A DNA stretch of 64,000 nt from Bordetella ansorpii. Lineage in GTDB: Bacteria > Pseudomonadota > Gammaproteobacteria > Burkholderiales > Burkholderiaceae_B. Shown piece after piece: positions 4,516 to 58,269 of this stretch. Each line of letters opens with the position of its first letter. Position 1 is the first letter of the stretch. A model generated the notes under the pieces. The model worked only from the letters and a program-made list of their open reading frames with translations, ran no database searches and had not been told where the DNA came from. The position numbers and the translations under genes are program-made. The stretch lies in NCBI RefSeq assembly GCF_900078705.1, contig NZ_FKIF01000007.1, positions 558,001-622,000 of the forward strand. Direction: 5' to 3'.

Positions 4516-4617
4516 GCAGAACGCGCGCCGAGGCGGTGCGCGGGCCGACGCGCGCTGCGTGGAGGCCAGGCACGCACCCGGCTGGACACAGCCGTGCCGC
4601 CCAGGGGCATCCGCGAT

Positions 4618-5193: not shown

Positions 5194-5234
5194 GGCGGCT
5201 CGCGGCGTTGCGGGGTTGGGGCTGGGAATGGGGG

Positions 5235-5480: not shown

Positions 5481-5558
5481 GCGTGACGCGGTTCCGGATG
5501 GACCGGCCCCGAGCGGGACCGGCGCCAGCATGATACTCGACGGCCCGGTTGCCCCTGT

Positions 5559-7273: not shown

Positions 7274-7340
7274 TTATATCTTCAGTATCACCACACGCCC
7301 AGATCGTCACGGGAAAAGGCGGCCACTTGATCGGGGACGC

Positions 7341-7415
7341 GGCGGACCCGGCTTCGCCGGTCCGCCTGCGTCGCCCCTTGAGGGGGGAGCGCGCAGCGCT
7401 TCTGGGGTGGGTCCA
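7341..7415. repeat. palindromic intergenic repeat (REP-like) between the two permease genes
   Basis: The gap holds a strong hairpin: GGCGGACCCGGC at 7341-7352 pairs with GCCGGTCCGCC at 7356-7366, with one bulged C. A CCCC-TTGA-GGGG stem follows at 7374-7385, then a GC-rich segment AGCGCGCAGCGCT. This hairpin arrangement resembles dispersed extragenic palindromes I associate with Achromobacter/Bordetella-type genomes. Within an operon it could stabilise or attenuate the mRNA between the permeases. Whether it is dispersed in this genome cannot be seen from one window. Confidence 0.5.
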
Positions 7416-7419
7416 CCTT

Positions 7420-8409: not shown

Positions 8410-8436
8410 CCGCTCTTCCTCGCCACCGTCACTCGA

Positions 8437-9384: not shown

Positions 9385-9407
9385 CGAATCTGCTCCTTGC
9401 TTCATGT

Positions 9408-11423: not shown

Positions 11424-11495
11424 TCTTCTGTTTCTCCTGATTCCCAGGCCCGCGTGCCCCCGGCGCGCGGATTCCCGTCGAAATGCACTTATGAA

Positions 11496-11510
11496 TGAAA
11501 ACGATTCTCA
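11496..11510. promoter_or_regulatory. Fur box between the siderophore receptor operon and the two-component system
   Basis: TGAAAACGATTCTCA keeps the 7-1-7 Fur symmetry (TGAnAAnNATTnTCA) and sits in a short AT-rich stretch. It lies 73 bases upstream of the receptor start and about 130 bases upstream of the response-regulator start, so it could serve the receptor operon and perhaps both directions. Position and sequence support it; binding is inferred. Confidence 0.75.
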
Positions 11511-11638
11511 TATTAGAATTTGACTGAAAGGGTTGCCGCAACGCGCTTTCCCCAACTTTTATCTTCTTTGCACTTCTTCACACACGCCCGCTTGCCGGCA
11601 TGGGACAGACCGGCAAGCGGGCGCAGGACGTATCGACG

Positions 11639-12355
11639 ATGGCTCACGCTCCCCTCGCTGCAACGCGCCGAATCCTGCTGATCGACGACGACGTCGAACT
11701 GGCGCAGATGCTGCGCGAATACCTCGAACCGCATCGCTACCAATTGACGCTGGCGCACACTGGCGCCCAAGCCGTGCCCCTGCTGGCACAGGACGACTTC
11801 GACCTGACGTTGCTGGACCTGATGCTGCCCGACGGCAGCGGACTGGACCTGCTGCGCCAGTACCGGGCACGGTCGCGGCGCCCGGTCATCATGTTCACGG
11901 CCCACGGCGGCGAGACCGACCGCGTGCTCGGCCTGGAACTGGGCGCGGACGACTACCTGGCCAAGCCCTTCAGCCCGCGCGAACTGCAGGCCCGCATGAC
12001 GGCGGTGCTGCGGCGCTTCCAGGAAGCGCCCGCGGCGGCCACGGCGGGACTGTCGGTCGGCGCGCTGTCGCTGGACCCGGCCACCGGCCTGGCCCGCATG
12101 GGCGCGGACGAAGTCGCGCTGACGGGCGCCGAGCAGCGCATCCTGGAAGTGCTGATGCGCGCGCCCGGACAGGTCATCGCGCGCGAGTTGATCGGGCAAT
12201 ACGCGCTGGGCCGCGCGCCCGACCGCTTCGACCGCAGCATCGACACCCACATCAGCAGCCTGCGGCGCAAGCTGCGCCTGGACAGCCATCCCGAGGCGCC
12301 CGCCATCCGCAACCTGCGCGGCGTGGGCTACGTCCTGGCCGGCGCGGCCGGATGA
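11639..12355 (+). CDS. OmpR/PhoB-family response regulator
   Basis: This 238-residue protein has an N-terminal receiver domain (ILLIDDDVELAQML, acidic pocket D16-D18; phosphoacceptor D60 in LTLLDLMLPDG; conserved FTAHG and KPFSPREL). It is followed by a winged-helix DNA-binding domain (about 140-235, with LTGAEQRILEVLMRAPGQVI and DTHISSLRRKL). Its stop overlaps the sensor-kinase start by 4 bases. The pair faces the siderophore receptor across a Fur box, as PfeR/PfeS do beside pfeA in Pseudomonas aeruginosa. Activation of the receptor operon in response to its siderophore is therefore the simplest inference. I chose the ATG at 11639 because the receiver fold begins a few residues later. Confidence 0.92.
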   Translation: MAHAPLAATRRILLIDDDVELAQMLREYLEPHRYQLTLAHTGAQAVPLLAQDDFDLTLLDLMLPDGSGLDLLRQYRARSRRPVIMFTAHGGETDRVLGLELGADDYLAKPFSPRELQARMTAVLRRFQEAPAAATAGLSVGALSLDPATGLARMGADEVALTGAEQRILEVLMRAPGQVIARELIGQYALGRAPDRFDRSIDTHISSLRRKLRLDSHPEAPAIRNLRGVGYVLAGAAG

Positions 12356-13788
12356 GCCGCTTCGTGGTCCGCTCGCTGTTCTGGCGCGCCTTCCTGTCGG
12401 TGTGGTGCGCCATGGCCGTCATCGTCGCCTGCGGCATGCTGCTGACGGCCACGGCGGCCTGGTACCGCTTCAACTCGCTGGACGGCCTGAGCCCCGGCGG
12501 CCTGGCGCGCGAGGCCCAGCAGGTGGCCCGCACGCAAGGCGCCGAGGGCCTGGAACGCTGGATCCGGGCCATGTCCGACAGTTACTCGGCGCTGAAGATC
12601 TACGTGGTCGACCCGCGGGACCGGGACATCCTGGGCCGCGCCCTGCCGCGCCGCATGAGCGACTGGCTGGATGCCTACCGCGGCTCGCAGGACGCCGTGC
12701 CGATGTCGGAAGAGCAGCAGCAGATGCGCGAGCTGCCGGGCGTGCGATCGTCGTGGTGGGCGCCGCAATGGCTGCGGCTGCCCGACGGCACGGCCCTGCT
12801 GATGCTGTACCTGCCCTTCGATTCCTCGCACTGGGAATTGCTGACCTTCACTCCAGTGCTGGTGGCGCTGCTGGCTTTCGCGCTGGCGGTGACCGCGCCG
12901 CTCTGTTGGGCGCTGACCCGCCACATCACCCGGCCGCTGCGCGCGCTGCGGCAGGCCACGCGCGCGTTGGCGCAGGGCGATCTGCAGGCCCGCACGCCTG
13001 CCGAACTGGCCCGGCGGCGCGACGAGCTGGGCCTGCTGGCGCGCGACTTCGACGGCATGGCGGGCCGGCTGCAGGCGCTGGTGGATACCCGCGAGCAACT
13101 GCTGCACACGGTGGCGCACGAGTTGCGCTCGCCGCTGGCGCGGCTGCGGCTGGCCACCGAACTGGCGCGCCGCAAGGACGACACGCAGGCTCTGCAACTG
13201 GACCGCATCGAACGCGAATGCGAGCGCCTGGACAGCCTTGTCGGCCATACGCTGCAACTGGCGCGGCTGTCCGCCATGGCCCGGCCCACCGCGCCGGTGG
13301 ATCTCAGCCATCTGGTGGACACCCTGGTGCAGGACGCCCGTTTCGAGGCCGGCGAGCAGCGCATCGGCATCGCCTGGACCGCGCCGGGTCCGCTGTGGGT
13401 GACCGGCGACGCGCAGACCCTGGCCAGCGCCGTCGACAACGTGCTGCGCAACGCGCTGCGCCACGCGGGCGCGGCGGCGGCCATCCACGTGGCCTTGCAG
13501 GCCGACGAAGGCCGGCTGCTGCTGGACATCGAGGACAACGGGCCGGGGGTGCCGTCCGAGCACGTCGGCCATCTGTTCGAACCGTATTTCCGCGTGCCGG
13601 GCGCCTCGCGCGCCAAGGGCGCGGGTTTGGGATTGAGCATCGCCCGCGCCGCAGTCGAGGCGCACGGCGGCAGTATCCGCGCCCAGAACCGCAAGCCGCG
13701 CGGGCTGGTGGTGCAGATCGAGTTGCCGCAGGCGGCCACGCAGAGTGCGGCGCCCGCGCCCCCTGCCCGCGCGGCGGTTTTGGCATGA
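12352..13788 (+). CDS. sensor histidine kinase partner of the response regulator
   Basis: This 478-residue membrane kinase has a first transmembrane segment at about residues 15-38 and a periplasmic sensor of roughly 125 residues. A second segment follows near 165-185 (LVALLAFALAVTAPLCWALT), then a HAMP domain (RHITRPLRALRQATRALAQGDL). The dimerisation/phosphoacceptor helix carries the active histidine near residue 256 in VAHELRSPLARLR. The ATPase domain has DNVLRNALRHA (N box), DNGPGVP (G1) and KGAGLGLSIARAAVEAHGG (G2). Its start overlaps the regulator stop (ATGA). The short HAMP-type architecture is CpxA/PfeS-like. The ligand is unknown; ferric siderophore or iron status is suggested only by location. 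Confidence 0.92.
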   Translation: MSRFVVRSLFWRAFLSVWCAMAVIVACGMLLTATAAWYRFNSLDGLSPGGLAREAQQVARTQGAEGLERWIRAMSDSYSALKIYVVDPRDRDILGRALPRRMSDWLDAYRGSQDAVPMSEEQQQMRELPGVRSSWWAPQWLRLPDGTALLMLYLPFDSSHWELLTFTPVLVALLAFALAVTAPLCWALTRHITRPLRALRQATRALAQGDLQARTPAELARRRDELGLLARDFDGMAGRLQALVDTREQLLHTVAHELRSPLARLRLATELARRKDDTQALQLDRIERECERLDSLVGHTLQLARLSAMARPTAPVDLSHLVDTLVQDARFEAGEQRIGIAWTAPGPLWVTGDAQTLASAVDNVLRNALRHAGAAAAIHVALQADEGRLLLDIEDNGPGVPSEHVGHLFEPYFRVPGASRAKGAGLGLSIARAAVEAHGGSIRAQNRKPRGLVVQIELPQAATQSAAPAPPARAAVLA

Positions 13789-13882
13789 GGCGTCGGCGGC
13801 TTGACGGCATGGACGCGTTCAATTTGAGACCGGACAGGAGACCGAATGCACCGCCGCTTCGGTGGCCGTGGAGTTCCCTTGA

Positions 13883-14092
13883 CGAAATTATTCCTTTGAA
13901 CAATCAGGGGGCAACCCTTTGCGCACCTTGTACGCATTCGATCCGAGACGCACGGCGATCTTGCTGATCGGTGGTGACAATACCGGAGATGACCGGTGGT
14001 ACCACAGGTACGTCCCCTTGGCTGATCGGCTCTACGACGAACATCTGAATGCACTAAGACGGGAAGGACTGACCCATGGCGAAAAAATTTGA
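13883..14092 (+). pseudogene. truncated RelE/HigB-type toxin, C-terminal part only
   Basis: This frame, open from a TGA at 13880 to a TGA at 14090, encodes about 69 residues ending in a clear RelE/HigB-like toxin C-terminus. It includes LYAFDPRRTAILLIGGDNTG and DRWYHRYVPLADRLYDEH. Intact members are about 110-120 residues and begin with a segment carrying catalytic-site residues that is absent here; the upstream bases show no match in any frame. The only possible starts are non-ATG codons such as TTG at 13919. It overlaps the antitoxin gene by 17 bases, the normal arrangement, so a 5' deletion of an intact toxin gene is likely. Base composition is lower in GC than the flanks. Confidence 0.75.
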
Positions 14093-14408
14093 CGCCCTGC
14101 GTGCAGCCATGTCTGCCGAGTCGCAGACCCGCGCCAAGGCAGCCACGGAACAAATGCTCAGTGAAATGCCGCTTCAGGAACTGAGGCAGGCCCGGGGGCT
14201 TTCACAAAAGATGTTGGCCGAAATACTGCATGTTCAGCAGCCATCTATAGCGAAAATGGAAAAGCGGACAGACATGTACATTTCCACGCTGCGCAGCCAC
14301 ATAGAAGCGATGGGTGGTCGACTGGAAATCGTTGCTCGCTTTCCAGATGGCTCAGTCAAAATCAGCAATTTCTCAGAACTGGATGTCATACCGGCTCTCG
14401 ATACTTGA
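14076..14408 (+). CDS. XRE/HigA-type antitoxin, apparently orphaned
   Basis: This 110-residue helix-turn-helix protein carries the DNA-binding region at about 45-75 (LRQARGLSQKMLAEILHVQQPSIAKMEK), followed by the family-typical RTDMYISTLRSHIEAMGGRLEIVARF. Such antitoxins neutralise the upstream RelE/HigB-like toxin and repress the operon. Here the toxin has lost its N-terminal half, so this is either a solitary antitoxin (a decayed locus or an anti-addiction remnant) or a repressor retained for another purpose. Codon usage (several AAA, AAT, ATA codons) is less GC-rich than in the neighbours, consistent with acquisition by transfer. Confidence 0.88.
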   Translation: MAKKFDALRAAMSAESQTRAKAATEQMLSEMPLQELRQARGLSQKMLAEILHVQQPSIAKMEKRTDMYISTLRSHIEAMGGRLEIVARFPDGSVKISNFSELDVIPALDT

Positions 14409-14472
14409 GCTACCCCGCAGGGTATCGCTGAGTAACGTGCGTCGCTTGGTGAACAGGCAGCAGAGACATTGC

Positions 14473-15291
14473 TCAGGCAATGGGAAGCAGGACATTCTTT
14501 AAACGAGGAAGCACCCGAATCGCCGTCGCGCCAGTCTCAGCGCGTATCACCGCCGCGGACTCGCCACGCAATTCCGCCAGCGACTCGGCAATCCGCGACA
14601 CTTGATGCGGCGCATTGCGCCGGTCCGGCTCGTGCAGCCAGGCGGGCGGGATGTCGGGCGCATCCGTTTCCAGCACCAGATGATCCAACGGCAATTCCGC
14701 CGCATGACGGCGGATCTGCCGCGCGCGCGGATACGTCATGGCCCCTCCGATGCCCAACGCGCAGCCCTGGTCGATGAAGCCCTGCGCCTGCTGCGCGCTG
14801 CCATTGAAGGCATGGGCGATGCCGCCCCGCAGCCTGGGCTTGCGCCGCAGGTGCTTCAACACGATGTCCTGCGAACGGCGCACGTGCAGCAGCACCGGCA
14901 AGCCGAACTCGGCGGCGATGTCCAGCTGGGCGGCGTAGAAATGCTCCTGCCGTTCCCGCTGCACGCCGCTGGCGATCTCTTCGACGAAGAAATCCAGGCC
15001 GATCTCGCCGATGGCGACGAAGCGCGGGTCGTCCATCGCGACGGCCACGGCCTGGCGCAGCGTAACCAGGTCTTCGTCGCGGGCGTCCCGCACGTACAGG
15101 GGATGGATGCCCAGCGCGTAGGCGCCGCCCGCGGTGGCGTGTGCCAGGTCGCGCACCACGTCGAAATTGAAGCGTGCGATCGCCGGGATGACGATGGCGC
15201 GCACCTCGGCCTGCCAGGCGCACCGCGCCACGTCGGCGCGGTCGGCGTCGAACTCGGCGGCATCCAGGTGGCAGTGGGTGTCGATCAGCAT
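14473..15291 (-). CDS. TatD-family metal-dependent hydrolase/DNase
   Basis: This 272-residue TIM-barrel hydrolase opens with the TatD metal motif MLIDTHCHLD. It continues with GIHPLYV, the metal ligand region AIGEIGLDFF, LPVLLHVRRSQ, the histidine of GIAHAFNGS and the late aspartate in LVLETDAPDIPP. These are the landmarks of TatD/YcfH/YjjV magnesium-dependent 3'-5' nucleases. I chose the ATG at 15291 because the family starts immediately before the DTHCH motif. An in-frame ATG 30 bases upstream would only add MPWRPALFIA, and neither has a strong ribosome site. It lies downstream of lolD on the same strand. Confidence 0.92.
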   Translation of the reverse strand: MLIDTHCHLDAAEFDADRADVARCAWQAEVRAIVIPAIARFNFDVVRDLAHATAGGAYALGIHPLYVRDARDEDLVTLRQAVAVAMDDPRFVAIGEIGLDFFVEEIASGVQRERQEHFYAAQLDIAAEFGLPVLLHVRRSQDIVLKHLRRKPRLRGGIAHAFNGSAQQAQGFIDQGCALGIGGAMTYPRARQIRRHAAELPLDHLVLETDAPDIPPAWLHEPDRRNAPHQVSRIAESLAELRGESAAVIRAETGATAIRVLPRLKNVLLPIA

Positions 15292-15352
15292 GGCGATGAA
15301 CAAGGCGGGCCGCCAGGGCACGCGCCCTGCCCGCGCCTAGCGGAAATCCGGA

Positions 15353-16078
15353 TCAGCCCGGAACGCGATCCAGCACCAGCTTACCGCGTTCCATGTGCAG
15401 TTGCCGGTCGGCCCGGGCCGCCAGTTCGCGGTCGTGCGTGACGATGACGAAAGCGGTGCCGGACTCGCGGTTCACGCGGGCCAGCAGGTCGAACATGCCG
15501 TGCGCGGTCTGGCGATCCAGGTTGCCGGTGGGCTCGTCGGCCAGCACGCAGGCCGGCCGCGTGACCAGCGCGCGCGCCAGCGCCACGCGCTGGCGTTCGC
15601 CGCCCGACAACTGGCCCGGGAAATGCCCTTCCCGCGCGGACAGGCCCACCTGCGCCAGCACCTCGCGCGCGGCCAGGCGGGCCGACTCGCGCGACTGGCG
15701 CCGCACGATCAGCGGCATGGCCACGTTGTCCAGCGCCGAGAACTCGGGCAGCAGGTGATGGAACTGGTAGACGAAACCCAGGCTGCGGTTGCGCAACTGG
15801 CTCTTGGCGGATTCGCTCAGGCCCTCGGCGGCCACGCCATCCACGGTGACGTTGCCGCTGGAAGGCACGTCCAGCAGCCCCAGGATGTGCAGCAGCGTGC
15901 TCTTGCCCGAGCCCGACGCGCCGATGATGGCGACCATCTCGCCGCGCTGCACGGTCAGCGATACGCCGCCCAGCACCTCGATGCGGGCCGGGCCTTCGTC
16001 GTAGATCTTGGCCAGGTTCTCGGCGTGCAGGGCGGGCGACGTCTTGTCGCCGTGAAGGGTCTTTTGGCTGTCAGTCAT
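15353..16078 (-). CDS. lolD: lipoprotein-releasing ABC transporter ATP-binding protein LolD
   Basis: This 241-residue ATPase powers release of outer-membrane lipoproteins from the inner membrane to LolA. It shows Walker A GASGSGKST, the LolD-typical HILGLLDVPSSG, and Q-loop FVYQFHHLLPEFSALDNVAMP, a Lol-family motif that contacts LolC/E. Signature LSGGERQRVALARAL, Walker B CVLADEPTGNLD and switch FVIVTHDREL are also present. Its start overlaps the upstream lolC/E-type gene by 8 bases. With the two membrane genes it forms a three-gene operon (membrane, membrane, ATPase) instead of the E. coli order C-D-E. Confidence 0.95.
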   Translation of the reverse strand: MTDSQKTLHGDKTSPALHAENLAKIYDEGPARIEVLGGVSLTVQRGEMVAIIGASGSGKSTLLHILGLLDVPSSGNVTVDGVAAEGLSESAKSQLRNRSLGFVYQFHHLLPEFSALDNVAMPLIVRRQSRESARLAAREVLAQVGLSAREGHFPGQLSGGERQRVALARALVTRPACVLADEPTGNLDRQTAHGMFDLLARVNRESGTAFVIVTHDRELAARADRQLHMERGKLVLDRVPG

Positions 16079-40356: not shown

Positions 40357-40372
40357 CTGTATATACATACAG
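40357..40372. promoter_or_regulatory. LexA (SOS) box upstream of lexA
   Basis: CTGTATATACATACAG matches the CTGT-N8-ACAG consensus of beta/gammaproteobacterial LexA exactly at the arms. It lies 30 bases before the lexA start, as expected for autorepression. Confidence 0.95.
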
Positions 40373-41656: not shown

Positions 41657-44011
41657 ATGGACGTACCGGATTCCATCCAATATCGCGCCATCGTCGCGCA
41701 CACGCCCCTGGGCGGCCAGCTCGCCTTCCGCAGCATGACCGGTTCGGAAGGTCTCTCGCGATTGTTCGAGTTCGACGTCGAGTTGATCGCCGACAACTAC
41801 AACCTGGATCTGGACGCGCTGCTGGGCAAATCGCTGACGCTGGAGATGGAGACGCAGGCGGGCTCGCGCTTCCTGGACGGCCACGTGACGCGCTGCGAGA
41901 TGATCGGCCGCGAAAGCGGCACCTCGCGCCATTACATCTACCGCGCCACGGTGCGCCCGTGGCTGTGGTATCTGACGCAGACCTCGGACAGCAAGATCTT
42001 CCAGAAGAAGACCGTGCCCGACGTGATTGCCGAGGTATTGGGTGAACACGGTTTCGCGTTCGAATCGAAACTGACCGGTACTTACCGCACCTGGGAATAC
42101 TGCGTGCAGTACCAGGAAACCGATTTTGCGTTCCTCAGCCGCCTGATGGAACACGAAGGCATCTATTACTACTTCAAGCACGGCAACGGGCAGCACACGC
42201 TGGTCATGGTCGACGACGTGGCCTCGCACGAAGCGCAGCCCGGCTACGCCGACATTCCGTACTACGGCCCGGACCGCCTGGTCACGCCGCAGGACGAATA
42301 CATCTCGATGTGGGAAGTGGCCTCGGCGATTACGCCGGACAGCTACGCCACGGTGGATTACGACCCGATCAAGCCGGGCGCCAGCCTGGATGCCGTGTCG
42401 CGCCAGCCGGGCGGCTCGCAAAGCGGCAACCTGGAGATGTACGAGTGGCAAGGCGGTTTCCAGGAGCCCGACCAGGCCGAGCAGTATTCGAAGATTCGCC
42501 TTCAGGAACTGCAGACCCAGCGCAAGCAGGGCCGTGGGATGGGTTCCGCGCGCAAGATCGCGCCGGGGTATCTCTTCACGTTGAAGAACCATCCGCGCTC
42601 GGCCGAGAACAAAGAGTATCTGGTGCTGTCGGCCAACTACCGCATGAATTCCGGCGGACACGCCACGGGTTCGGGCTCCGAATTCTTCTGGGAAACCTCG
42701 TTCGTCGTCCTGCCCACCAGCCATCAGTACCGCGCCCCGCGCACCTCGCCGATTCCGCATACCCACGGCCCGCAGACCGCCCGCGTGGTGGGCCCGGCCG
42801 GCGAGGAGATCTGGACGGACGAATACGGCCGCATCAAGGTGCAGTTCCACTGGGACCGCTACGGCCAGAAGAACGAGAACAGCTCGTGCTGGGTGCGCGT
42901 GTCCAGCCCCTGGGCCGGCGGCGGCTTCGGCGGACTGCAATTGCCGCGCATCAACGATGAGGTCGTCGTCGACTTCATCGGCGGCTGCCCCGACCGCCCG
43001 CTGATCCTGGGCCGCGTCTACAACGGCAACAACATGCCGCCCGTGGACCTGCCCGCCAGCGCCACGCAAAGCGGCTTCCGCAGCCAGTCGGTGCATGGCG
43101 ACCCGTCCATGTCCAACCGCATGATCTTCGACGACAAGCTGGGCATGGAACTGTTCCACACCCGCGCGCAGCGCAACATGCTGAACGACGTGGTCAATGA
43201 CCACGATCACCATGTCGGCAACAACCATTGCCAGAACGTGGGCGTGGACCACACGCATACCGTGGGCAAGAACCACACGCAGACGATCGGCTGCAACCAC
43301 ACCATCGAGGTCGGCGAAGACCTGAAGACCACCATCAAGCGGATGGAGGAACGGCTGGTGCAGGCCGAGCAGAAGATCACGGTGATGAAGGATGCCACGC
43401 AGCGGTTCGAGGGGCAGTTCATCAAAGAAGTGATCGGCATGGAGAAGCGAATTACGTCGGCCGAGCAGCAGATCACGGTCAATCAGGCCGCGCTGCACAA
43501 GTACAACACGACGCTGACCCAGGAGATCCAGAACAATCACAAACTGAAGGTACAGGCCGATCAGAGCACGGAAATTCTGGGCGAGATGAAGGTCGAGGCG
43601 GGCAGCTTCTGGAAATCGGTCAAAGGCAACGCTTTTGACACAACCTTGGGAGCGAAATTTTCGGCCGTCATCGGGACCAACGTCTCCCTCTATCCCGTGG
43701 TCAACGCCACAGTGGCAGGTTGGACCAATTCGATGTCCGCAATGAGCCTGACGCTTAATGGATACTCCGCCACGGTAGTGGGCAAAACACTAATGACCGC
43801 AGGGCAGAAAGCCAAGCTGGCGGCGGCCGAACAGCGTCTGGTAGGCATTGAAAACAATGTCACCGGTCTGAAGTCGGACACGGCGGGACTGATAAAAAGC
43901 ATGCAAGGTGTCAAAGCGAGTCAAGCCGGGCTAAAACAGGCCCTGAACGGGGTGAAGAACAATATCAGCAGCCTGGACAATCGTGTGTCTGCGCTCGAGA
44001 GTCACGCGTAG
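41657..44011 (+). CDS. type VI secretion spike protein VgrG with divergent C-terminal coiled-coil extension
   Basis: A 784-residue VgrG. The gp27-like base opens with VAHTPLGGQLAFRSMTGSEG and includes YCVQYQETDFAFLSRLMEHEGIYYYF. The gp5 OB-fold carries WTDEYGRIKVQFHWDR and SSCWVRVSSPWAGGGFGG. A short histidine-rich needle repeat follows at about residues 515-560 (DHHVGNNH, VGKNHTQTIG). The last 220 residues are unlike standard VgrG. Two heptad-rich coiled coils flank a hydrophobic Ser/Thr/Val-rich segment (near NVSLYPVVNATVAGW). That part is visibly poorer in GC, so it may be an exchanged effector or adaptor module. I chose the ATG at 41657, which has GAGGG upstream. No other T6SS structural gene is present. 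Confidence 0.88.
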   Translation: MDVPDSIQYRAIVAHTPLGGQLAFRSMTGSEGLSRLFEFDVELIADNYNLDLDALLGKSLTLEMETQAGSRFLDGHVTRCEMIGRESGTSRHYIYRATVRPWLWYLTQTSDSKIFQKKTVPDVIAEVLGEHGFAFESKLTGTYRTWEYCVQYQETDFAFLSRLMEHEGIYYYFKHGNGQHTLVMVDDVASHEAQPGYADIPYYGPDRLVTPQDEYISMWEVASAITPDSYATVDYDPIKPGASLDAVSRQPGGSQSGNLEMYEWQGGFQEPDQAEQYSKIRLQELQTQRKQGRGMGSARKIAPGYLFTLKNHPRSAENKEYLVLSANYRMNSGGHATGSGSEFFWETSFVVLPTSHQYRAPRTSPIPHTHGPQTARVVGPAGEEIWTDEYGRIKVQFHWDRYGQKNENSSCWVRVSSPWAGGGFGGLQLPRINDEVVVDFIGGCPDRPLILGRVYNGNNMPPVDLPASATQSGFRSQSVHGDPSMSNRMIFDDKLGMELFHTRAQRNMLNDVVNDHDHHVGNNHCQNVGVDHTHTVGKNHTQTIGCNHTIEVGEDLKTTIKRMEERLVQAEQKITVMKDATQRFEGQFIKEVIGMEKRITSAEQQITVNQAALHKYNTTLTQEIQNNHKLKVQADQSTEILGEMKVEAGSFWKSVKGNAFDTTLGAKFSAVIGTNVSLYPVVNATVAGWTNSMSAMSLTLNGYSATVVGKTLMTAGQKAKLAAAEQRLVGIENNVTGLKSDTAGLIKSMQGVKASQAGLKQALNGVKNNISSLDNRVSALESHA

Positions 44012-44019
44012 GAGACGTC

Positions 44020-44442
44020 ATGCAGGGACTGAAGTACCTGGCTTTCACCCTTACGGCAGTAGTGGTCATCTGGGGGGCCTGGATGATCTACAAGGGCCAA
44101 TATGGCGCAGGGGTGGGCATGCTGCTCACCTCGGTGCTCATGGTAGTGCCTTACTTGCTGTTCATGCATCCGTATGTGCGCATGGATGCATTGATGACGC
44201 GTTTGAACAAGGAAGGGATTCCTGCCCAGGCATCCATCGTCAGCATCGAAGAGACATCGATGTACGTCAACGAGGTGCCGGTCATGCGCGTGAACGTCAA
44301 GTACGCCATTGAAGGCAAGGAGCGCACCGGCGAGATCAAGCAACCCATCCCATATCACTCTCTATCGTCCGTTCAACCGGGCACGCTGGTTCCCATATTG
44401 GTAGATCCCAAAGACGACGCGCAATTCCTGTTGCAGTTTTAG
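44020..44442 (+). CDS. small membrane protein, first of two paralogues (DUF3592-like), candidate immunity protein
   Basis: A 140-residue protein with two N-terminal membrane helices (about 6-24 and 30-50) and a beta-rich soluble domain. The soluble domain includes AQASIVSIEETSMYVNEVPVMRV, EIKQPIPYHSL and PILVDPKDDAQF. These resemble DUF3592-type modules. It starts 8 bases after vgrG, and a related gene follows after a 70-base gap. Because it directly follows a VgrG with a divergent tail and has a membrane-anchored periplasm-type layout, an immunity role is conceivable. There is no direct evidence. Composition is less GC-rich than the core genes. Confidence 0.7.
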   Translation: MQGLKYLAFTLTAVVVIWGAWMIYKGQYGAGVGMLLTSVLMVVPYLLFMHPYVRMDALMTRLNKEGIPAQASIVSIEETSMYVNEVPVMRVNVKYAIEGKERTGEIKQPIPYHSLSSVQPGTLVPILVDPKDDAQFLLQF

Positions 44443-44512
44443 AGGCAGGCATACCCACATCGTTCCGGGGCAATCCTCTTCGTACTCGGGCGCAAACATC
44501 CGGCGAGGCGGC

Positions 44513-44935
44513 ATGCAGTGGTTGAGGTACATGATCTGGTTGATGGTCAGCGGCTACCTTGTCTGGTCCGCTTGGTCCCTGCGTGCGGGGAGATACGAAG
44601 AGTCGGTCGGCATGTTCGCCTCGGCTCTGTTGACCGGCGCCCTGTATCACTTCTTTTTTCGGCGCCACATTATTCAGGATGCGCTCCGGGAGCGACTGGA
44701 AAAGGAAGGACTGCGCGTCCCGGCGACGATCCTCAGCGTCCAACAGACCTCAAGGTACCTGAATGAAACCCCGGTCATGCGGGTGAAGGTCAAATACACC
44801 GCCGGAGGTAGGGAGCACACGCACGAGATCAAGCAGCCTGTCTCCTACCTGGCGGTGTCCCATCTGCAGCCTCACAAGCGCATAACCGTACTGGTCGATC
44901 CGAAAAATACTGACCGCTTCCTGCCGCAGCCCTGA
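44513..44935 (+). CDS. small membrane protein, second of two paralogues (DUF3592-like)
   Basis: A 140-residue paralogue of the preceding gene with the same layout: two membrane helices (about 6-22 and 29-48), then a conserved soluble domain. The shared pattern is PATILSVQQTSRYLNETPVMRV, HEIKQPVSYLAV and VLVDPKNTDRF. The most conserved strip between the pair is TSxYxNExPVMRVxVKY, so that surface is probably functional. The N-terminal helices have diverged. Duplicated candidate immunity genes behind a VgrG are common in polymorphic effector loci. Here no toxin can be named, so other envelope roles remain open. Confidence 0.7.
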   Translation: MQWLRYMIWLMVSGYLVWSAWSLRAGRYEESVGMFASALLTGALYHFFFRRHIIQDALRERLEKEGLRVPATILSVQQTSRYLNETPVMRVKVKYTAGGREHTHEIKQPVSYLAVSHLQPHKRITVLVDPKNTDRFLPQP

Positions 44936-44940
44936 AGCCC

Positions 44941-47688
44941 ATGAAAACGATCAAACCGTTCCGACTGACCTCGCTGCATCGGCCCTACTCCTGGCGCAAG
45001 CGCAATTTCCTGTCAGTGGCCATCTACGCCCTGGCGGACCTGCGTGAACCTGGCAACCCCAAGCTGCTGTCCGACATGGAAGTCTGGCGCGAGGTGATGC
45101 CCGAGCTGGACTGCGACGGCGTGATCGACCACATCCTGCCCAAGACGGTGCCCGAGTTCCTGGTGGGCGGCCATGCCTACACCAGCCATCAGGACGACAA
45201 GACCAAGGTCATGGTGCGCGCGCAGGTGGGCGAACTGGAGAAAGAGCTGGTCGTATTCGGCGACCGCTACCTGATCGGCGACCGCCCGACCGACCCGGTT
45301 CCCTTCGACAGCATGCCGATGACCTGGAGCCGCGCCTTCGGCGGTCCGAACTTTCCGGAAAACCCCGGCGGCACGGGCATCGAACCGGTGGACGCCCATG
45401 GGCAGAAGCTGGTGCGCTATCCCAACATCGAGCACGGCATCGATCGCTACCAGCGCGGACAGCGCAACGGCACGCCCTACAGCTTCGGCCCCGTCAACAT
45501 GATGCTGCCGCGGCGCTTCGGCATGATGGGCACGTATTCCGAGCGCTGGAAGAAGGAAGAGTTTCCGGGTTTCTTCCCGGACATGAACCCGTTGATCTTC
45601 AACGCCGCCGAACCGGACCAGCGCTGGCCGGATCGCAGCGAACTGCCATTGGGCGAGGCCTTCAGCATCTGGAACATGCACCCCACGATTCCGTGCTGGG
45701 AAGGCAAATTGCCCAAGTGGCATGCGCGTGCCTTCATCCGCCGCAAAGCGGCGGATGGCGAGGTCTCGCCGATCGACGAAGTCGACATGCGCGCCACCAC
45801 GGCCTGGTTCGTGCCACACCAGGAAAGAGTGTTGCTGATCTATCACGGCAACATCGAAGTGCAAGAGGACGATGCCAGCGACGTGCTGAGCCTGATGTCC
45901 GCGCTGGAAGCGCAAGGCGCCGAGCGCTCGCCCGAGCACTATGCCCAGATCATGCGCCTGCGCGAGGACCCCGAAACCGGCGGCGTGCGCGTGATGTGCG
46001 ACGACGAACTGATCACCGAGGCCATCCTCGGCGCGGTCAACATGGATACCGACGCGGTCTTCCAGACGCCGACCTGGGTCAAGTCGCAACTCTACAAACA
46101 CAAGGTGATCGCCGAACGGCGCCAGGAACTGGTCGACTGCGGCCAGAACCCGGACGAGATCGTGCCAGACCTGCACGGGCCCGAAAGACGCTATGGCCCC
46201 GGAGACCTGCCCGAGCTGGCGCGCGACATGGCCCGTCACAAGGAAGAATCGCAAAAGCTGAAGGAAGATCTGGAACGCCAGAGCGCCGAGCTGAAGGCCC
46301 ACTACGAAAAGCAGGGTGTACCCATGCCCGATACCGACAGCCGCCCCTCGGGACCGCCCACGCAATTGCTGGCGCTGCTGGCGCAGCCCGAGATGTTGGG
46401 ATCGTTGATGAATCCCACCACCGCCGACGTCGACTTCACGCTGCTGGGCAAGCTGATGGGCCAGGCCGAACCCCTGGCGCCAAGCCAGGACTACAAGCAG
46501 ACGCCCCAGTACGCCGCGTTCATCAAGGACAATCCGGAACTGCCCGGCAAGGATGCGACCGCCTGGACGCGGGAGCCGGCCTTCCAGCGCCAGATGCGGT
46601 CGATGAAGCCGCTGCTGCACAAGAGCTACCTGTATTCCGCACACTGGCAGGACGCGGCCCTGAAGCTGGACACCGAACAGAACAGAATGATGCGAGCCTT
46701 GGTGATGGAAAAGCACCAGCGCGGCGAATCGCTGTCCGAGCTGGATCTGACCGGTTGTGCCTTGCCCGGCCTGAACTTCGACAACGCCGACTTCAGCCGC
46801 TCGTTCCTGGAGAACAGCGACCTGTCCGACAGCACCTTCCAGTCCTGCCACTTCACGGAATGCGTGCTGGCGCGCGCCGACCTGTCCAACAGCAAGTTCG
46901 TGAACTGTACGTTCGATAAAGCCAACCTGTCGCTGGCCAAGCTGTACAACGTCTGCTTCGAGAACTGCTCGTTCAAGGAATCGACGATCGAGAACACGGA
47001 CTTCGAGCAATGCGTGATCCAGGGCGGCGTGTTCGATTCGGTGATGCCCCACAAAATCCGCCTGCTGAAGTGCCGGCTGCTGGGCGGCGCGCATCTGCGC
47101 ATGAGCATCTTCAACGAGGCGGAACTGACGGACTGCCGCCTCGAAGAGGTGCGCTTCGAGAAGGTCTCTTTCCAGAACGCCAGGCTGACCGATTCGGTGT
47201 TTGAAAGCGCCAATCTGGACGGCGGCTCGTTCTTCATCACCACGATGTCCAACGTGTTCTTTCACCGCTGCCAGATCAGCAATACCGCGTTCGTGCACCA
47301 GACCGAGCTGGATGCCTGCTCGTTCGAGGGTTCCAGCCTGACACAGTGCAATTTCCGGGAAACGCCGATGCAGTCGGTGAATTTCGAGAATGCCCGCATC
47401 GAGCTTTGCGACTTTTCACTGGCCGACCTGAGCCACGCCAATCTGCGCCAGGCGCGCGCCACCCACACGCAGTACACGCGCGCGACCCTGGTGCATTCGG
47501 ATCTGTCGAAGGCCAACCTGATGGGCAGCGACTTCAAGGCCGCGGACCTGCGGCATGCCGATCTCAGCGTGGCCAATCTGTTCCGCGCCAACTTCGCGCT
47601 GGGCAAGATGGACGACAGCACGGCCCTGGACGGCGCCTACAAGAAGGAAGTGAACCTGTACCCTTTGCGGCAGGCCAAGACCTCATGA
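44941..47688 (+). CDS. DUF2169-pentapeptide-repeat fusion protein, T6SS adaptor
   Basis: A 915-residue fusion. Residues about 1-340 form a DUF2169 domain (FLSVAIYALADL, FGDRYLIGDR, SRAFGGPNFPENPGG, WNMHPTIPCWEG). This family is repeatedly found beside PAAR/VgrG genes and is thought to load cargo onto the spike. Residues about 410-460 carry a charged helical linker. About 590-900 are pentapeptide repeats of the A(D/N)LxX type, for example LSELDLTGCALPGLNFDNADF, building a right-handed beta-helix. It starts 5 bases after the second DUF3592-like gene and overlaps the next gene by 4 bases. Confidence 0.88.
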   Translation: MKTIKPFRLTSLHRPYSWRKRNFLSVAIYALADLREPGNPKLLSDMEVWREVMPELDCDGVIDHILPKTVPEFLVGGHAYTSHQDDKTKVMVRAQVGELEKELVVFGDRYLIGDRPTDPVPFDSMPMTWSRAFGGPNFPENPGGTGIEPVDAHGQKLVRYPNIEHGIDRYQRGQRNGTPYSFGPVNMMLPRRFGMMGTYSERWKKEEFPGFFPDMNPLIFNAAEPDQRWPDRSELPLGEAFSIWNMHPTIPCWEGKLPKWHARAFIRRKAADGEVSPIDEVDMRATTAWFVPHQERVLLIYHGNIEVQEDDASDVLSLMSALEAQGAERSPEHYAQIMRLREDPETGGVRVMCDDELITEAILGAVNMDTDAVFQTPTWVKSQLYKHKVIAERRQELVDCGQNPDEIVPDLHGPERRYGPGDLPELARDMARHKEESQKLKEDLERQSAELKAHYEKQGVPMPDTDSRPSGPPTQLLALLAQPEMLGSLMNPTTADVDFTLLGKLMGQAEPLAPSQDYKQTPQYAAFIKDNPELPGKDATAWTREPAFQRQMRSMKPLLHKSYLYSAHWQDAALKLDTEQNRMMRALVMEKHQRGESLSELDLTGCALPGLNFDNADFSRSFLENSDLSDSTFQSCHFTECVLARADLSNSKFVNCTFDKANLSLAKLYNVCFENCSFKESTIENTDFEQCVIQGGVFDSVMPHKIRLLKCRLLGGAHLRMSIFNEAELTDCRLEEVRFEKVSFQNARLTDSVFESANLDGGSFFITTMSNVFFHRCQISNTAFVHQTELDACSFEGSSLTQCNFRETPMQSVNFENARIELCDFSLADLSHANLRQARATHTQYTRATLVHSDLSKANLMGSDFKAADLRHADLSVANLFRANFALGKMDDSTALDGAYKKEVNLYPLRQAKTS

Positions 47689-48749
47689 TGACGCTGGAAG
47701 AACTGCTGGAAAAAACCCGATACGGCGAGCCGGTCTCCGACCAGCGCTTTGCCGGCCTGCGCCTGGCGGGCGCCGATCTGTCCGCCACCACTTTCGACCA
47801 CGTCGATTTCTCGGGATGCGCGTTCGACGGCTGCAACCTGACCGAGGCCACGTTCACCGGTTGCGACTTCACGGGCGCAGTGTTCCAGGACTGCGTGCTG
47901 CAGAAGGCCATCTTCAACGAATGCCGCCTGAGCGACAGCCGCTACACACGCGTCACCATGACGCACGCCATCGTGAACGACTGCGACCTGAGCGCCATCC
48001 GGATGGCGGACAGCAACCTGGGCTTCGCCACCATCCGGAATTCGACGCTGACAGATGCGGTGTTCAGCGAGATCGCCAATGACCATGCCGTGTTCTTCTG
48101 CGCCAGGCTTGAGCGCACGCGTTTCGAATCGGTGAAGTTCTCGCAGTTCACCTTCCACCAGGCCGACCTGAGCGCCTGCGAATTCGACGGCGTCACCTTC
48201 GAGAAGACCGTCTTCTTCGAATCCGACCTGCACGCCCTGCAGATGCCGCGGGCGTCCATGGTGATGTGCCAGTTCATCGATGCGAACCTGCATGGCGTGG
48301 ACCTGACCGGCAGCGACCTGACGCAAAGCAGCTTCAAGGGCTGCGACTTGATAGGCGCGAAACTGGACATGGCCAACGCCAACAACACGCTGTTCCCCTA
48401 CGCCCGGGTAGAAGGCGCGTCGTTCCGCAATGCCCGAATGGATGCATCCTTGTGGGTCGAATGCCAGGCCGACCAGGCGGATTTCACCGGCACGACGCTC
48501 AAGCAGGCGGTGTTTCATCGGGCCTTGCTGAAGCATGCCCGCTTCGACGGCTGCGACCTGGAATACACGGATTTCTCATATGCCGACGTCAACGGCAGCA
48601 GCTTTGCCAGATCGGCTTTCAGCCGCACCAAGTTCCACAGCGCATTGATGGAATCGGATGCCTTGCTCCGGCACCCCGGCGTACTGGCCAACGACCCGGC
48701 CTTGTACGAAGCGCAGTTGTGGAGCACCGACAACGGCAACAGCCTCTAG
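47685..48749 (+). CDS. pentapeptide-repeat protein of the T6SS island
   Basis: A 354-residue protein that is almost wholly pentapeptide repeat from about residue 22 to 325 (for example LAGADLSATTFDHVDFSGCAF). It has a short polar N-terminal helix (TLEELLEKTRYGEP) and a helical tail. It resembles the C-terminal half of the preceding fusion protein and is probably a duplicate of that half. Pentapeptide proteins of this kind accompany DUF2169 and DUF4150 genes in T6SS clusters; their exact role is unsettled. The ATG at 47685 overlaps the upstream stop (ATGA). Confidence 0.88.
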   Translation: MMTLEELLEKTRYGEPVSDQRFAGLRLAGADLSATTFDHVDFSGCAFDGCNLTEATFTGCDFTGAVFQDCVLQKAIFNECRLSDSRYTRVTMTHAIVNDCDLSAIRMADSNLGFATIRNSTLTDAVFSEIANDHAVFFCARLERTRFESVKFSQFTFHQADLSACEFDGVTFEKTVFFESDLHALQMPRASMVMCQFIDANLHGVDLTGSDLTQSSFKGCDLIGAKLDMANANNTLFPYARVEGASFRNARMDASLWVECQADQADFTGTTLKQAVFHRALLKHARFDGCDLEYTDFSYADVNGSSFARSAFSRTKFHSALMESDALLRHPGVLANDPALYEAQLWSTDNGNSL

Positions 48750-48762
48750 GAGGACACAACAC

Positions 48763-49152
48763 ATGTTTACCAACACACAGATGTTCGGCGTGGACCTCGG
48801 ATTTCCGGACGTCTGCCTGACGCCGCCGGCGATGATCCCCATCCCCTACCCCGACATTGCGTTGGGGCCGACGGCCATCCCGGTCTGCTTCAACATCCTG
48901 CACTGCTTCGCGCCGGTCCATAACCTGTTCACGATCACGCCCATCACCAACGGCGACAACCCTGGGATCGCCACCGGCGTGATCTCTCACCTGGTGATGG
49001 GGCCCTCCACGCCGCGCACAGGCGCATTCACCTACCTGAACCGCTGCGCCCCGACCACGCGCCTGACGTCGATCAACACCCAGAACGGCATCAACACGAT
49101 CGGCATGCGCATCGTGCCCAGCCAGCCGAAGATATTGGCGTTGGGAGCTTGA
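48763..49152 (+). CDS. DUF4150 (PAAR-like) spike-tip protein
   Basis: A 129-residue protein with the DUF4150 core: MFTNTQMFGVDLGFPDVCLT, PIPYPDIALGPTAIPV, GDNPGIATGVISHLVMGPST and TRLTSINTQNGINTIGMRIVPSQ. DUF4150 folds like PAAR and caps the VgrG spike. Here it has no C-terminal toxin domain, so it is a bare tip, unlike evolved PAAR proteins. AGGAGG lies 7 bases before the ATG. It is the last gene of the island; a hairpin pair follows about 90 bases downstream. Confidence 0.92.
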   Translation: MFTNTQMFGVDLGFPDVCLTPPAMIPIPYPDIALGPTAIPVCFNILHCFAPVHNLFTITPITNGDNPGIATGVISHLVMGPSTPRTGAFTYLNRCAPTTRLTSINTQNGINTIGMRIVPSQPKILALGA

Positions 49153-56692: not shown

Positions 56693-56907
56693 CGGAGGCG
56701 GGAATGGGTATGCAACCAGGTGTTTTGTTACACAAGCATACAATTTTTTCAATAACCAGCGGGCAGCGGAATAGCCGTATTGCCCGCCTGGCCGTCCCGC
56801 GCTTTGATTAACCTAGGGTTTATACCAAGCCGCATGCAACGCCGGTTTACCGCGAATACGCCCCGGCAGAACTGCAGGGCCGGTGGAAACCGATACCGCG
56901 GAAATTA

Positions 56908-56931
56908 AAAAAGCCCCTTGCGGGGCTTTTT
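56908..56931 (-). terminator. intrinsic terminator of the second cold-shock gene
   Basis: AAAAAGCCCC and GGGGCTTTTT form a 10-bp stem with a 4-base loop, running leftward into T residues, 20 bases after the stop. Confidence 0.93.
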
Positions 56932-56950
56932 CAGAACTTCAGGTCTCGCC

Positions 56951-57154
56951 TTACAGGGGCGTGATCTTCGTGGCCTGGGGACCCTTGGGGCCCATCGCCG
57001 TCACGAAGCTGACGCGCTGGTTTTCTTCCAGCGACTTGAAGCCCTGCGATTGGATTTCCGAGAAGTGAGCGAACAGGTCCTTACCACCCGATTCCGGGGT
57101 GATGAAGCCATAACCCTTTTCCGCGTTGAACCATTTAACGACGCCGGTTTCCAT
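56951..57154 (-). CDS. cold-shock protein, CspA family (second copy)
   Basis: A 67-residue single cold-shock domain, about two-thirds identical to the first copy ([45 protein letters not shown]). RNP1 and RNP2 are intact. Its promoter lies about 130-165 bases upstream, again leaving a long leader, so both genes probably share the thermosensitive-leader type of control. Which copy is cold-induced cannot be told from sequence. Confidence 0.95.
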
Positions 57155-57290
57155 ACTGTATTTCCTAGAGATTTAAATTGGGCTTGCGCCCGGGACCACG
57201 AGTCAAGCAAGGAGGGGACAGTAGAACAAGAACGGTCGCCGATAAGGCAAGGTACTGTACAAGCATCAACACCCTGGATCGTGTGCCGAC

Positions 57291-57319
57291 ACTATCGTCA
57301 GATTCCCCTCTCAAGTCAA
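57291..57319 (-). promoter_or_regulatory. sigma70-type promoter of the second cold-shock gene, with long leader
   Basis: Read leftward, TTGACT and GATAGT are spaced by exactly 17 bases. Transcription would begin near 57284, about 130 nt before the ATG at 57154. The gap 57,155-57,486 otherwise shows no gene; it is the leader and promoter of this gene plus the AT-rich end region of the next one. Confidence 0.75.
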
Positions 57320-57486
57320 CATAATCCTCAAAAATGCGTGCCCATAATGCAACAAAGAGAAACAGGGACGTATGTTGAGCAACAAATGCCCATTAATGCA
57401 AAACGTCACTGGCCCGCCCCGCGAAAGACGTGGGGGACAGATGGTAACGCAGGTCAAGGATTACACCAAATCAGTAAGTGCAAATA

Positions 57487-57807
57487 TTAGTCATCAATCG
57501 GTAATCCGAGCAAATCCAAAGCCGCCCCGAAACTGTTCTCGTCGGGGCAGAAAAACACCACGACATCGCCGGGATTGACGTTTTCAAGCACTTGATCGAC
57601 CTGATCTTGCGCTTGATCAATATCGTCGATGCCCGCCGCGTGTATGGCGGCGCCCGCTTCGACCAATTCCGGCGGCACAATGGCGGGAATCGATTCCAGG
57701 TCGGCATCGCCCAGCATGACGTACACCGTCAAGCTGGCGCCTTCCAGCGTGGTTTCCAGACAAAGCCCGTGCTCGAGCGTGGCCTGGCGGCGGCTGAGGA
57801 TTTCCAT
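57487..57807 (-). CDS. small acidic protein, unrecognised
   Basis: A 106-residue strongly acidic protein (LGDADLESIPAIVPPELVEAG, IDDIDQAQDQVDQVLENV, VVFFCPDENSFGAALDLLG) with no membrane segment and no motif I recognise. Regular hydrophobic spacing suggests a compact alpha/beta fold. It lies between the cold-shock genes and a small membrane-protein gene on the same strand. Coding character is supported by its length, composition and lack of a better competing frame, not by homology. Confidence 0.6.
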   Translation of the reverse strand: MEILSRRQATLEHGLCLETTLEGASLTVYVMLGDADLESIPAIVPPELVEAGAAIHAAGIDDIDQAQDQVDQVLENVNPGDVVVFFCPDENSFGAALDLLGLPIDD

Positions 57808-57846
57808 GATCGGTATCGCCTTGTTTGAATTGAAAAACGCGAACGC

Positions 57847-58128
57847 TTATCGCGCCCGCATGCGCAGCAGCACTTTACGCGCCACCAGCGTGGCCGCTGT
57901 GCCGATAACCGAGCAGAACAGGAAGGAGGCCACTGCGAGCAGCCAGGACTGGCTGGCCAGTTCGCCCTCGCCGGACGCCAGCAGAACCGCCACCAGCACG
58001 CACAGAGCGCCCACCAGCACGCCCGCCACGCTGTGCGCGACCGAACGCAAGACGGCCAGCAACGTGCCCCCCACGAGCGCTAGCGCAACGAGGGCCGCCA
58101 TGGACCAGAACAGGGATTCGTACTGCAT
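57847..58128 (-). CDS. small three-helix membrane protein, unrecognised
   Basis: A 93-residue protein with three membrane segments (about 8-28, 33-52 and 59-80) and a basic C-terminus (ARKVLLRMRAR). I chose the ATG at 58128, because the hydrophobic core begins a few residues later and the residues encoded further upstream are polar and Pro/Gln-rich. Family and function are unknown to me. It lies 39 bases before the small acidic gene and may be co-transcribed with it. Confidence 0.6.
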   Translation of the reverse strand: MQYESLFWSMAALVALALVGGTLLAVLRSVAHSVAGVLVGALCVLVAVLLASGEGELASQSWLLAVASFLFCSVIGTAATLVARKVLLRMRAR

Positions 58129-58269
58129 GGAGAGGCTTGCGGCCTGGCGGGCGTGGCCCGGGGCAGGGATGTCTTGCGGAAGGATGGCTTGCTGAGGATC
58201 TTGAGTCGGCAACCGAGGATACGGCTACCCATTACCCTCTCATTATGCACGTTTCCGAGAATGTTTGCT

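What the first reader, a model, noticed from the sequence alone, without database searches (positions are those of the whole stretch)
41657..49152. Orphan T6SS island with no recognisable toxin
The island has a VgrG, two paralogous membrane proteins, a DUF2169-pentapeptide fusion, a second pentapeptide protein and a bare DUF4150 tip in one tight rightward group. The tssA-M apparatus and any known toxin fold are absent. Such spike-adaptor sets normally carry an effector. So an unrecognised activity may sit in the VgrG tail or in the pentapeptide/DUF2169 proteins. The pair of 140-residue genes lies where immunity genes normally lie.
Basis: partly seen in the sequence, partly recalled or inferred. 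Interest (0 to 1): 0.72.

Follow-up and report, generated by a model that had tools for sequence, protein, structure and literature searches.

The report
Swappable spike tail with matching immunity genes
This gene block makes the tip of a bacterial harpoon whose machinery lies elsewhere in the same genome; the end of its spike and the two small membrane proteins beside it look like a killing part and its antidotes that are exchanged together between strains.

Summary
The genes are real and at the stated coordinates. The island is not orphan: the same genome has a T6SS apparatus cluster on contig C6, and that cluster holds the one spike-chaperone gene the island lacks (tvpC, DUF3540). The block VgrG–M–TvpAB–TvpB–PIPY is a Class III "Tvp" spike-assembly set, described in Serratia in 2026. 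In two relatives it sits between tvpC and tssG; here it lies between lexA and lon, which are neighbours in some genomes of the genus. The DUF2169 and pentapeptide proteins are best read as chaperones. Between this genome and B. ansorpii one tract (43417–44936: VgrG tail, M1, M2) is 65% identical inside 93% surroundings. Its silent divergence is 0.48–0.76 against 0.08–0.18 in nine apparatus-cluster genes. An M gene (membrane helices plus OB-like domain) lies between vgrG and tvpAB in 22 of 25 named loci. Best reading: the VgrG tail is the membrane-acting part and M1/M2 are its immunity genes, as proposed for Serratia VgrG1/Vai1, but with a different-looking immunity family and a tail lacking the hydrophobic C-terminal peptide. 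No toxicity was tested. New variant of a known kind.

The parts
41657..44011 (+). VgrG, 784 aa; residues 1 to about 588 are a conserved body (95-98% identical in two close relatives)
   Evidence: Pfam/TIGR03361; start by coding score; identity
43417..44936 (+). exchanged cassette: VgrG tail (from about codon 588) plus M1 and M2
   Evidence: best two-breakpoint split of the window/B. ansorpii alignment on a 10-base grid: 64.7% identity inside, 93.4% outside, delta lnL 370; pS 0.48-0.76 inside; GC3 of tail 0.72 and M1 0.74 against 0.86-0.87 in body and TvpAB
43457..44011 (+). VgrG tail, residues 601-784: strand-like alternation at 600-712, heptad-like at 713-784; proposed membrane-acting part
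   Evidence: periodicity tests, uncorrected; Pfam matches above cut-off end at residue 609 of the longer reading, i.e. about 581 here; AlphaFold monomer too poor to use, pLDDT 44
44020..44442 (+). M1, 140 aa, two predicted TM helices then a beta domain; proposed immunity gene of the present tail
   Evidence: 59% identical to the single M of B. genomosp. 13, 45% to B. ansorpii M1
44513..44935 (+). M2, 140 aa, paralogue of M1; possibly an immunity gene retained from an earlier tail
   Evidence: AlphaFold pLDDT 89: helices 2-24 and 28-65, then beta domain 67-138, OB-like; 58% identical to B. ansorpii M2
44941..47688 (+). TvpAB: DUF2169 domain with C-terminal pentapeptide repeats, spike chaperone by family
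   Evidence: PF09937 5.3e-65, PF00805; nearest solved chain 8vth, DUF2169 domain-containing protein, E 0.0047; Class III feature
47685..48749 (+). TvpB: stand-alone pentapeptide-repeat protein
   Evidence: PF00805 5.5e-45
48763..49152 (+). PIPY/DUF4150 spike cap, 129 aa, no effector domain
   Evidence: PF13665 1.3e-30; 100% identical in B. ansorpii

Best explanation
The island is the spike block of this genome's own T6SS, lying at a separate site. Shown by sequence: it is a Class III Tvp set, its missing TvpC is encoded between tssF and tssG in the apparatus cluster, and its VgrG tail, M1 and M2 differ together, as one tract, from those of B. ansorpii. Inferred: TvpC from C6 first nucleates a TvpAB-TvpB-PIPY cap, which then passes to this VgrG; the spike is fired into neighbours; the VgrG tail, not a separate enzyme, disturbs the target's inner membrane; M proteins, anchored in the inner membrane by one or two helices with an OB-like domain probably on the cytoplasmic side, recognise the tail and protect kin. 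M1 would be the current immunity gene and M2 a retained older one, as in the Vibrio displacement model.
For: Families and the Class III definition. Apparatus and tvpC in the same genome. In B. genomosp. 1 (L041/L065) and Achromobacter Marseille-Q4962 (L067) the block sits between tvpC and tssG, while in this genome, B. ansorpii (L086), B. genomosp. 13 (L087) and A. aestuarii (L091) tvpC is followed by tssG. lexA and lon are adjacent in G003 and G009. Cassette: 65% inside against 93% outside; pS tail 0.64, M1 0.58, M2 0.48 against 0.08-0.18 for nine apparatus-cluster genes, lexA 0.16, lon 0.12, VgrG 1-600 0.20, TvpAB 0.15; low GC3. M lies between VgrG and TvpAB in 22 of 25 named loci. G018 has two VgrGs, each followed by its own M, before one TvpAB-TvpB-PIPY. 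Partial Mantel on 24 loci: tail-M 0.61 (P 0.002), body-M -0.15. Precedents: Vai1 is an immunity gene just downstream of vgrG1, with VgrG1-dependent depolarisation, and Vai1 pulls down only VgrG1; V. cholerae tail/immunity displacement.
Against: No function was tested. The Serratia VgrG1 C-terminal domain was not specifically toxic alone. The window tail has no TM-grade segment (largest KD-19 mean 1.18) and lacks the hydrophobic C-terminal peptide. Adjacency alone could make tail and M move together; the M-TvpA partial correlation is 0.58. TvpB is also raised (pS 0.34). In the Variovorax pairs with a sharp tail jump (for example L051/L058, L052/L066) the downstream genes differ strongly too, and ten Achromobacter pairs show no consistent separate cassette. 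For window/B. genomosp. 13 the contrast is smaller, and the two-breakpoint fit finds only the missing M2. M-like proteins occur outside Tvp islands: 5 of 17 hits, 2 of them in a genome without TssC. M is not shown to be a Vai1 homologue.
Confidence: 0.62

Rival explanations
1. Spike-only block: the VgrG tail is merely a long structural spike that varies for mechanical or baseplate-fit reasons, and the M proteins are membrane accessories of assembly, not immunity proteins. Killing relies on other effectors such as the Tlde1-like one in the C6 cluster.
For: The tail shows strand- and heptad-like periodicity of a spike. M is nearly constant in the islands regardless of tail type. A Tlde1-like gene with a DUF2195 neighbour is in the apparatus cluster. 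The Serratia VgrG1 pathway also delivers Hcp-dependent effectors.
Against: M copy number varies (2, 2, 1 in three close relatives), and M diverges with the tail, not with the body. A duplicated VgrG has a duplicated M. The equivalent Serratia gene is an immunity gene.
Confidence: 0.25
2. An unlinked or unannotated effector is carried non-covalently by this spike, and M1/M2 are immunity genes against that effector.
For: No toxin domain was found in the tail; the Serratia authors also could not assign the toxic moiety formally.
Against: No candidate effector gene was called between lexA and lon in the window, and in B. ansorpii and B. genomosp. 13 the only extra gene is a TctC-type receptor. The cassette boundary falls inside vgrG, not at a separate gene.
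Confidence: 0.1
3. The M genes are ordinary DUF3592-like membrane proteins caught in the island by chance, and the cassette is a random recombination tract.
For: Of 17 M-profile hits 9 lie in Tvp islands, 5 outside, 3 were not examined; two of the outside ones match DUF3592 in Pfam.
Against: 22 of 25 named loci keep M in the same place across Bordetella, Achromobacter, Advenella and Variovorax; two more carry it rearranged, and the last has a copy with one stop.
Confidence: 0.03

Closest known systems
Serratia marcescens Db10 VgrG1-Vai1-TvpAB-TvpB-TvpC-Paar1 (Class III Tvp; PMC13373197)
   Same: Order vgrG, small membrane gene, TvpAB, TvpB, small DUF4150 cap; long VgrG without a recognised toxin domain
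   Different: tvpC is in the apparatus cluster here, not in the island; two M genes of a weakly DUF3592-like family, where Vai1 is labelled DUF3192; predicted cytoplasmic OB-like domain rather than a periplasmic body; hydrophilic VgrG C-terminus
Synteny type C DUF2169 clusters (PMC11883445)
   Same: DUF2169 fused to pentapeptide repeats with DUF4150 (PIPY) and VgrG
   Different: DUF3540 gene not in the island; M genes present
Vibrio cholerae large-cluster vgrG-3 tail/immunity displacement (PMC5361080)
   Same: Constant 5' vgrG, variable 3' tail followed by immunity genes, older immunity genes retained downstream
   Different: VgrG-3 tails degrade peptidoglycan in the described case; this tail is an unrecognised spike extension
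Burkholderia glumae T6SS group_5 DUF2169/pentapeptide pair (PMC8747328)
   Same: TvpAB-like and TvpB-like neighbours needed for a T6SS phenotype
   Different: Reported as virulence accessory genes of a plant pathogen; M genes are not mentioned in the passages seen

Membership tests
Class III Tvp spike-assembly system | TvpA (DUF2169) with a C-terminal pentapeptide-repeat extension | tested here: met
   PF09937 and PF00805 in one 915-aa protein
Class III Tvp spike-assembly system | Separate pentapeptide-repeat protein TvpB | tested here: met
   47685-48749, PF00805 5.5e-45
Class III Tvp spike-assembly system | DUF3540-type TvpC | tested here: met
   Not in the island; two in the genome, C6:724413 in the apparatus cluster and C9:337749 in the second Class III locus
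Class III Tvp spike-assembly system | Small DUF4150 cap without effector domain, and a long VgrG | tested here: met
   129-aa cap; VgrG 784 aa
Class III Tvp spike-assembly system | TvpC pre-complex replaced by VgrG | not testable with these tools
   needs protein work
VgrG1/Vai1-type effector-immunity pair | Small membrane-anchored protein encoded directly downstream of vgrG | tested here: met
   8 bases separate the vgrG stop codon (ends 44011) from the M1 start (44020); TM helices
VgrG1/Vai1-type effector-immunity pair | Homology to Vai1 (DUF3192) | tested here: inconclusive
   No DUF3192 hit at E up to 1 for M1/M2, but HMMER's filters drop weak hits and the Vai1 sequence itself was not obtained for comparison
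VgrG1/Vai1-type effector-immunity pair | Hydrophobic C-terminal VgrG peptide proposed as the toxic part | tested here: not met
   Last 26 residues mean hydropathy -0.39. By a limit of 1.3 for the best 13-residue mean in the last 40 residues, chosen afterwards, 18 of 35 VgrG rows with an M have one (two rows are duplicates) and the window does not (0.09)
VgrG1/Vai1-type effector-immunity pair | VgrG-dependent killing neutralised by the small protein | not testable with these tools
   needs competition assay
DUF3592 (PF12158) | Score above the Pfam gathering cut-off | tested here: inconclusive
   M2 21.1 and M1 15.4 bits against 25.3; the B. genomosp. 13 M reaches 26.3
Specialised VgrG with a known toxin domain | Recognisable C-terminal toxin domain | tested here: not met
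   Pfam and NCBIfam show none

The most novel reading that the evidence does not exclude
The spike extension itself is the toxin: a non-enzymatic, variable VgrG tail that harms the inner membrane when fired, recognised allele by allele by membrane-anchored OB-like proteins, with tail and immunity genes exchanged between strains as one cassette. This would be a kin-recognition system built into the structural spike and widespread in Burkholderiales Tvp islands.
Probability: 0.4. Interest if true: 0.75.

Novelty: new variant of a known kind. Interest (0 to 1): 0.55.

Why it matters
How a VgrG without a toxin domain kills is an open question from the 2026 Serratia study. Natural exchange of residues from about 588 to the end together with M1/M2 points to that part as the specificity region and to M as a candidate immunity family in Burkholderiales. 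About half of the M-linked VgrGs seen, this one among them, lack a clearly hydrophobic C-terminal peptide, so that peptide is unlikely to be the universal toxic element. The split locus suggests that TvpC can be supplied from a distant apparatus cluster, so apparently orphan vgrG islands should be read against the whole genome.
Full report
WHAT IS THERE. Pfam confirms VgrG, DUF2169, pentapeptide repeats and the Tox-PAAR-like cap. DUF3592 is only a weak label for M2 (5.2e-4, under the cut-off) and M1 (0.031). No toxin domain is recognised. The left neighbour was taken as lexA and the right one as lon from their sequences (my reading, not a Pfam result). Relatives: G001 matches Bordetella ansorpii SMC-8986 and G011 matches B. 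genomosp. 1 by position and gene lengths; the window genome is in the same genus group.

NOT AN ORPHAN. The same assembly has TssC on contig C6, in a cluster TssA–TssB–TssC–Hcp–ImpE–TssE–TssF–DUF3540–TssG–Tlde1-like–DUF2195–ClpV, with TssJ, TssK, TssM (IcmF), TagF and an OmpA-domain protein beyond. ClpV is named from its AAA/ClpB domains; TssL was not tested as such. TssC was found in 11 of 12 genomes tested, the miss being G179, which shows no Tvp island in the two stretches read. T6SS in Bordetella is known from a 26-gene locus of B. bronchiseptica RB50 (PMC3470547, passages).

CLASS III TVP. Monlezun, Earl and Coulthurst 2026 (PMC13373197; I read the abstract and sections 5, 7, 8, 9, 12 and 13 and further passages) define Class III as DUF2169 with a pentapeptide extension (TvpAB), a separate pentapeptide protein (TvpB) and a DUF3540 protein (TvpC), and find it with small DUF4150 caps and long VgrGs. 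In Serratia a TvpC pre-complex must form before the VgrG1 complex. Sachar 2025 (PMC11883445, passages) shows DUF2169 as chaperone of DUF4150 'PIPY' domains. The window island has everything but TvpC. DUF3540 is in 10 of 11 genomes searched, and in 9 of 9 good-quality ones; the miss is the fragmentary G012. In G008 and G053 it lies beside the block, in the others elsewhere. In this genome one copy is in the apparatus cluster between tssF and tssG, and one in a second Class III locus on C9.

A DISPLACED BLOCK. In B. genomosp. 1 (L041/L065) and Achromobacter Marseille-Q4962 (L067, the same contig as L134 by length) the order is TssF–TvpC–VgrG–M–TvpAB–TvpB–PIPY–TssG, then ClpV. In this genome, B. 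ansorpii (L086), B. genomosp. 13 (L087) and Achromobacter aestuarii (L091) TvpC is followed directly by TssG, and the block is elsewhere. G018 differs: its tvpC lies between tssE and tssF. The lexA–lon interval is a variable site. Of 15 genus genomes, the island lies there in three (own, G001, G011). lexA and lon are near neighbours in G003 and G009 (about 130 and 75 bases apart), and in G007 and G013 within 1 kb. Two other genes lie there in G010 and G008, and one was called in G006. For G005, G002, G004, G014 and G012 lexA was not seen in the stretch read. Whether the block moved out of the cluster or was acquired separately is not decided: the block's VgrG body is only 58% identical to that of B. 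genomosp. 1.

THE CASSETTE. Compared with B. ansorpii, VgrG is 98% identical over the body, TvpAB, TvpB and PIPY 89–100%, but the tail 68%, M1 45% and M2 58%. Silent divergence pS: lexA 0.16, lon 0.12, nine apparatus-cluster genes (TvpC and the Tlde1-like gene among them) 0.08–0.18, VgrG 1–600 0.20, TvpAB 0.15, PIPY 0.21, TvpB 0.34; VgrG 601–755 0.64 (0.54–0.77), VgrG 756–784 0.76 (0.49–1.03), M1 0.58 (0.51–0.68), M2 0.48 (0.38–0.59). High silent divergence points to allele replacement, not selection on the protein alone. A two-breakpoint fit on a 10-base grid puts the tract at 43417–44936, 4 bases before tvpAB: 64.7% inside, 93.4% outside. In the window the tract has low GC3 (tail 0.72, M1 0.74, body 0.87, TvpAB 0.86); B. 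ansorpii is intermediate (0.82) and B. genomosp. 13 shows little or no difference (tail 0.92, M1 0.89, body 0.92). Against B. genomosp. 13 the contrast is smaller but present: tail 0.61, M1 0.60, VgrG 1–600 0.34, TvpAB 0.37, TvpB 0.41, cluster genes 0.14–0.31; there the fit finds only the absence of M2.

SURVEY. One scan of named genomes gave 25 loci with this TvpAB. M lies between VgrG and TvpAB in 22 of 25. Two Advenella loci (L048, L050) carry M with VgrG inverted, and Andreprevotia (L061) has a copy with one stop codon, found as G254 on a contig of the same length. TvpC is within the fetched stretch in 14 of 25: 12 between TvpB and PIPY, 2 upstream of VgrG. An M profile against 399 genomes of the order gave 17 matches in 11 genomes: 9 in a Tvp island, 5 outside as far as the stretches show, 3 not examined. 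M-like genes also sit after PIPY in the C9 locus and in two other genomes (L127, L128). G018 has two VgrG–M pairs before one TvpAB–TvpB–PIPY. On 24 loci (the window, 21 of the 25 named ones, L032 and L035; L053, L056, L061 and L068 were dropped for missing or short genes), partial Mantel correlations given the other three: tail–M 0.61 (P 0.002), M–TvpA 0.58 (0.002), body–tail 0.48 (0.002), TvpA–TvpB 0.42, tail–TvpB 0.34, body–M −0.15. The loci are related and M lies between tail and TvpA, so linkage alone could give part of this. Counter-cases: the ten Achromobacter pairs show no consistent tail jump beyond the rest, and in Variovorax pairs with a sharp jump (for example L051/L058, body pS 0.27, tail about 0.6–0.7) the downstream genes differ strongly too.

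MECHANISM. Shown: family membership, apparatus in trans, joint divergence of tail and M genes. Inferred from Serratia: VgrG-dependent depolarisation, M as immunity. Inferred here: M1 current and M2 retained, after the displacement model of Kirchberger 2017 (PMC5361080, passages). B. genomosp. 13 has one M, closest to window M1 (59%); window M2 is closest to B. ansorpii M2 (58%) and groups with it at 98/99 support, while the place of M1 is unresolved.

NOVELTY. The Tvp framework and the idea of a VgrG-borne membrane toxin are published. PMC13373197 does not name Bordetella or Achromobacter in its main text (its appendix was not seen), and no held paper links DUF3592 with T6SS or immunity. New here, as far as these searches go: the split locus, the tail-plus-M cassette, a different-looking immunity family, and a tail class without the proposed peptide. 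I file it as a new variant of a known kind.

Noticed in passing
L040 (G000:C9:333000-350000), about 3762-11537: A second Class III Tvp locus in the same genome: VgrG-TvpAB-TvpB-TvpC-PIPY followed by a 169-aa M-like membrane protein, with the immunity-type gene at the end instead of after vgrG.
   Followed up: partly
L039 (G000:C6:734501-754000), about 3955-15844: A third vgrG locus: VgrG, single-domain DUF2169, DUF4150, then proteins of 387, 160 and 336 aa without Pfam matches and a run of small genes including a SUKH-family protein; a candidate effector with an immunity array.
   Followed up: partly
L038, 7321-8248: Tlde1-like gene (PF10908, 2.2e-6, just under the cut-off) with a DUF2195 neighbour between TssG and ClpV, present also in B. 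ansorpii and B. genomosp. 13.
   Followed up: partly
L138 (G036:C14:1-10000), 1022-2761: Three tandem M-like membrane genes beside tauE and rnr without a VgrG in the stretch; possibly an orphan immunity array, but close to a contig start.
   Followed up: partly
window 40357-40372: Exact LexA-type box upstream of lexA, as expected for autoregulation.
   Followed up: no
window 56900-58200: GC falls to about 0.55 at 57-58 kb with only short ORFs; two ORFs of 188-190 aa have no Pfam match.
   Followed up: no
L126, 7066-7821: On an Enterobacter plasmid T6SS, two small membrane-type ORFs lie between VgrG and TvpAB; the 71-aa one scores weakly with the M profile (15 bits), hinting that Enterobacterales have distant M relatives.
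   Followed up: partly
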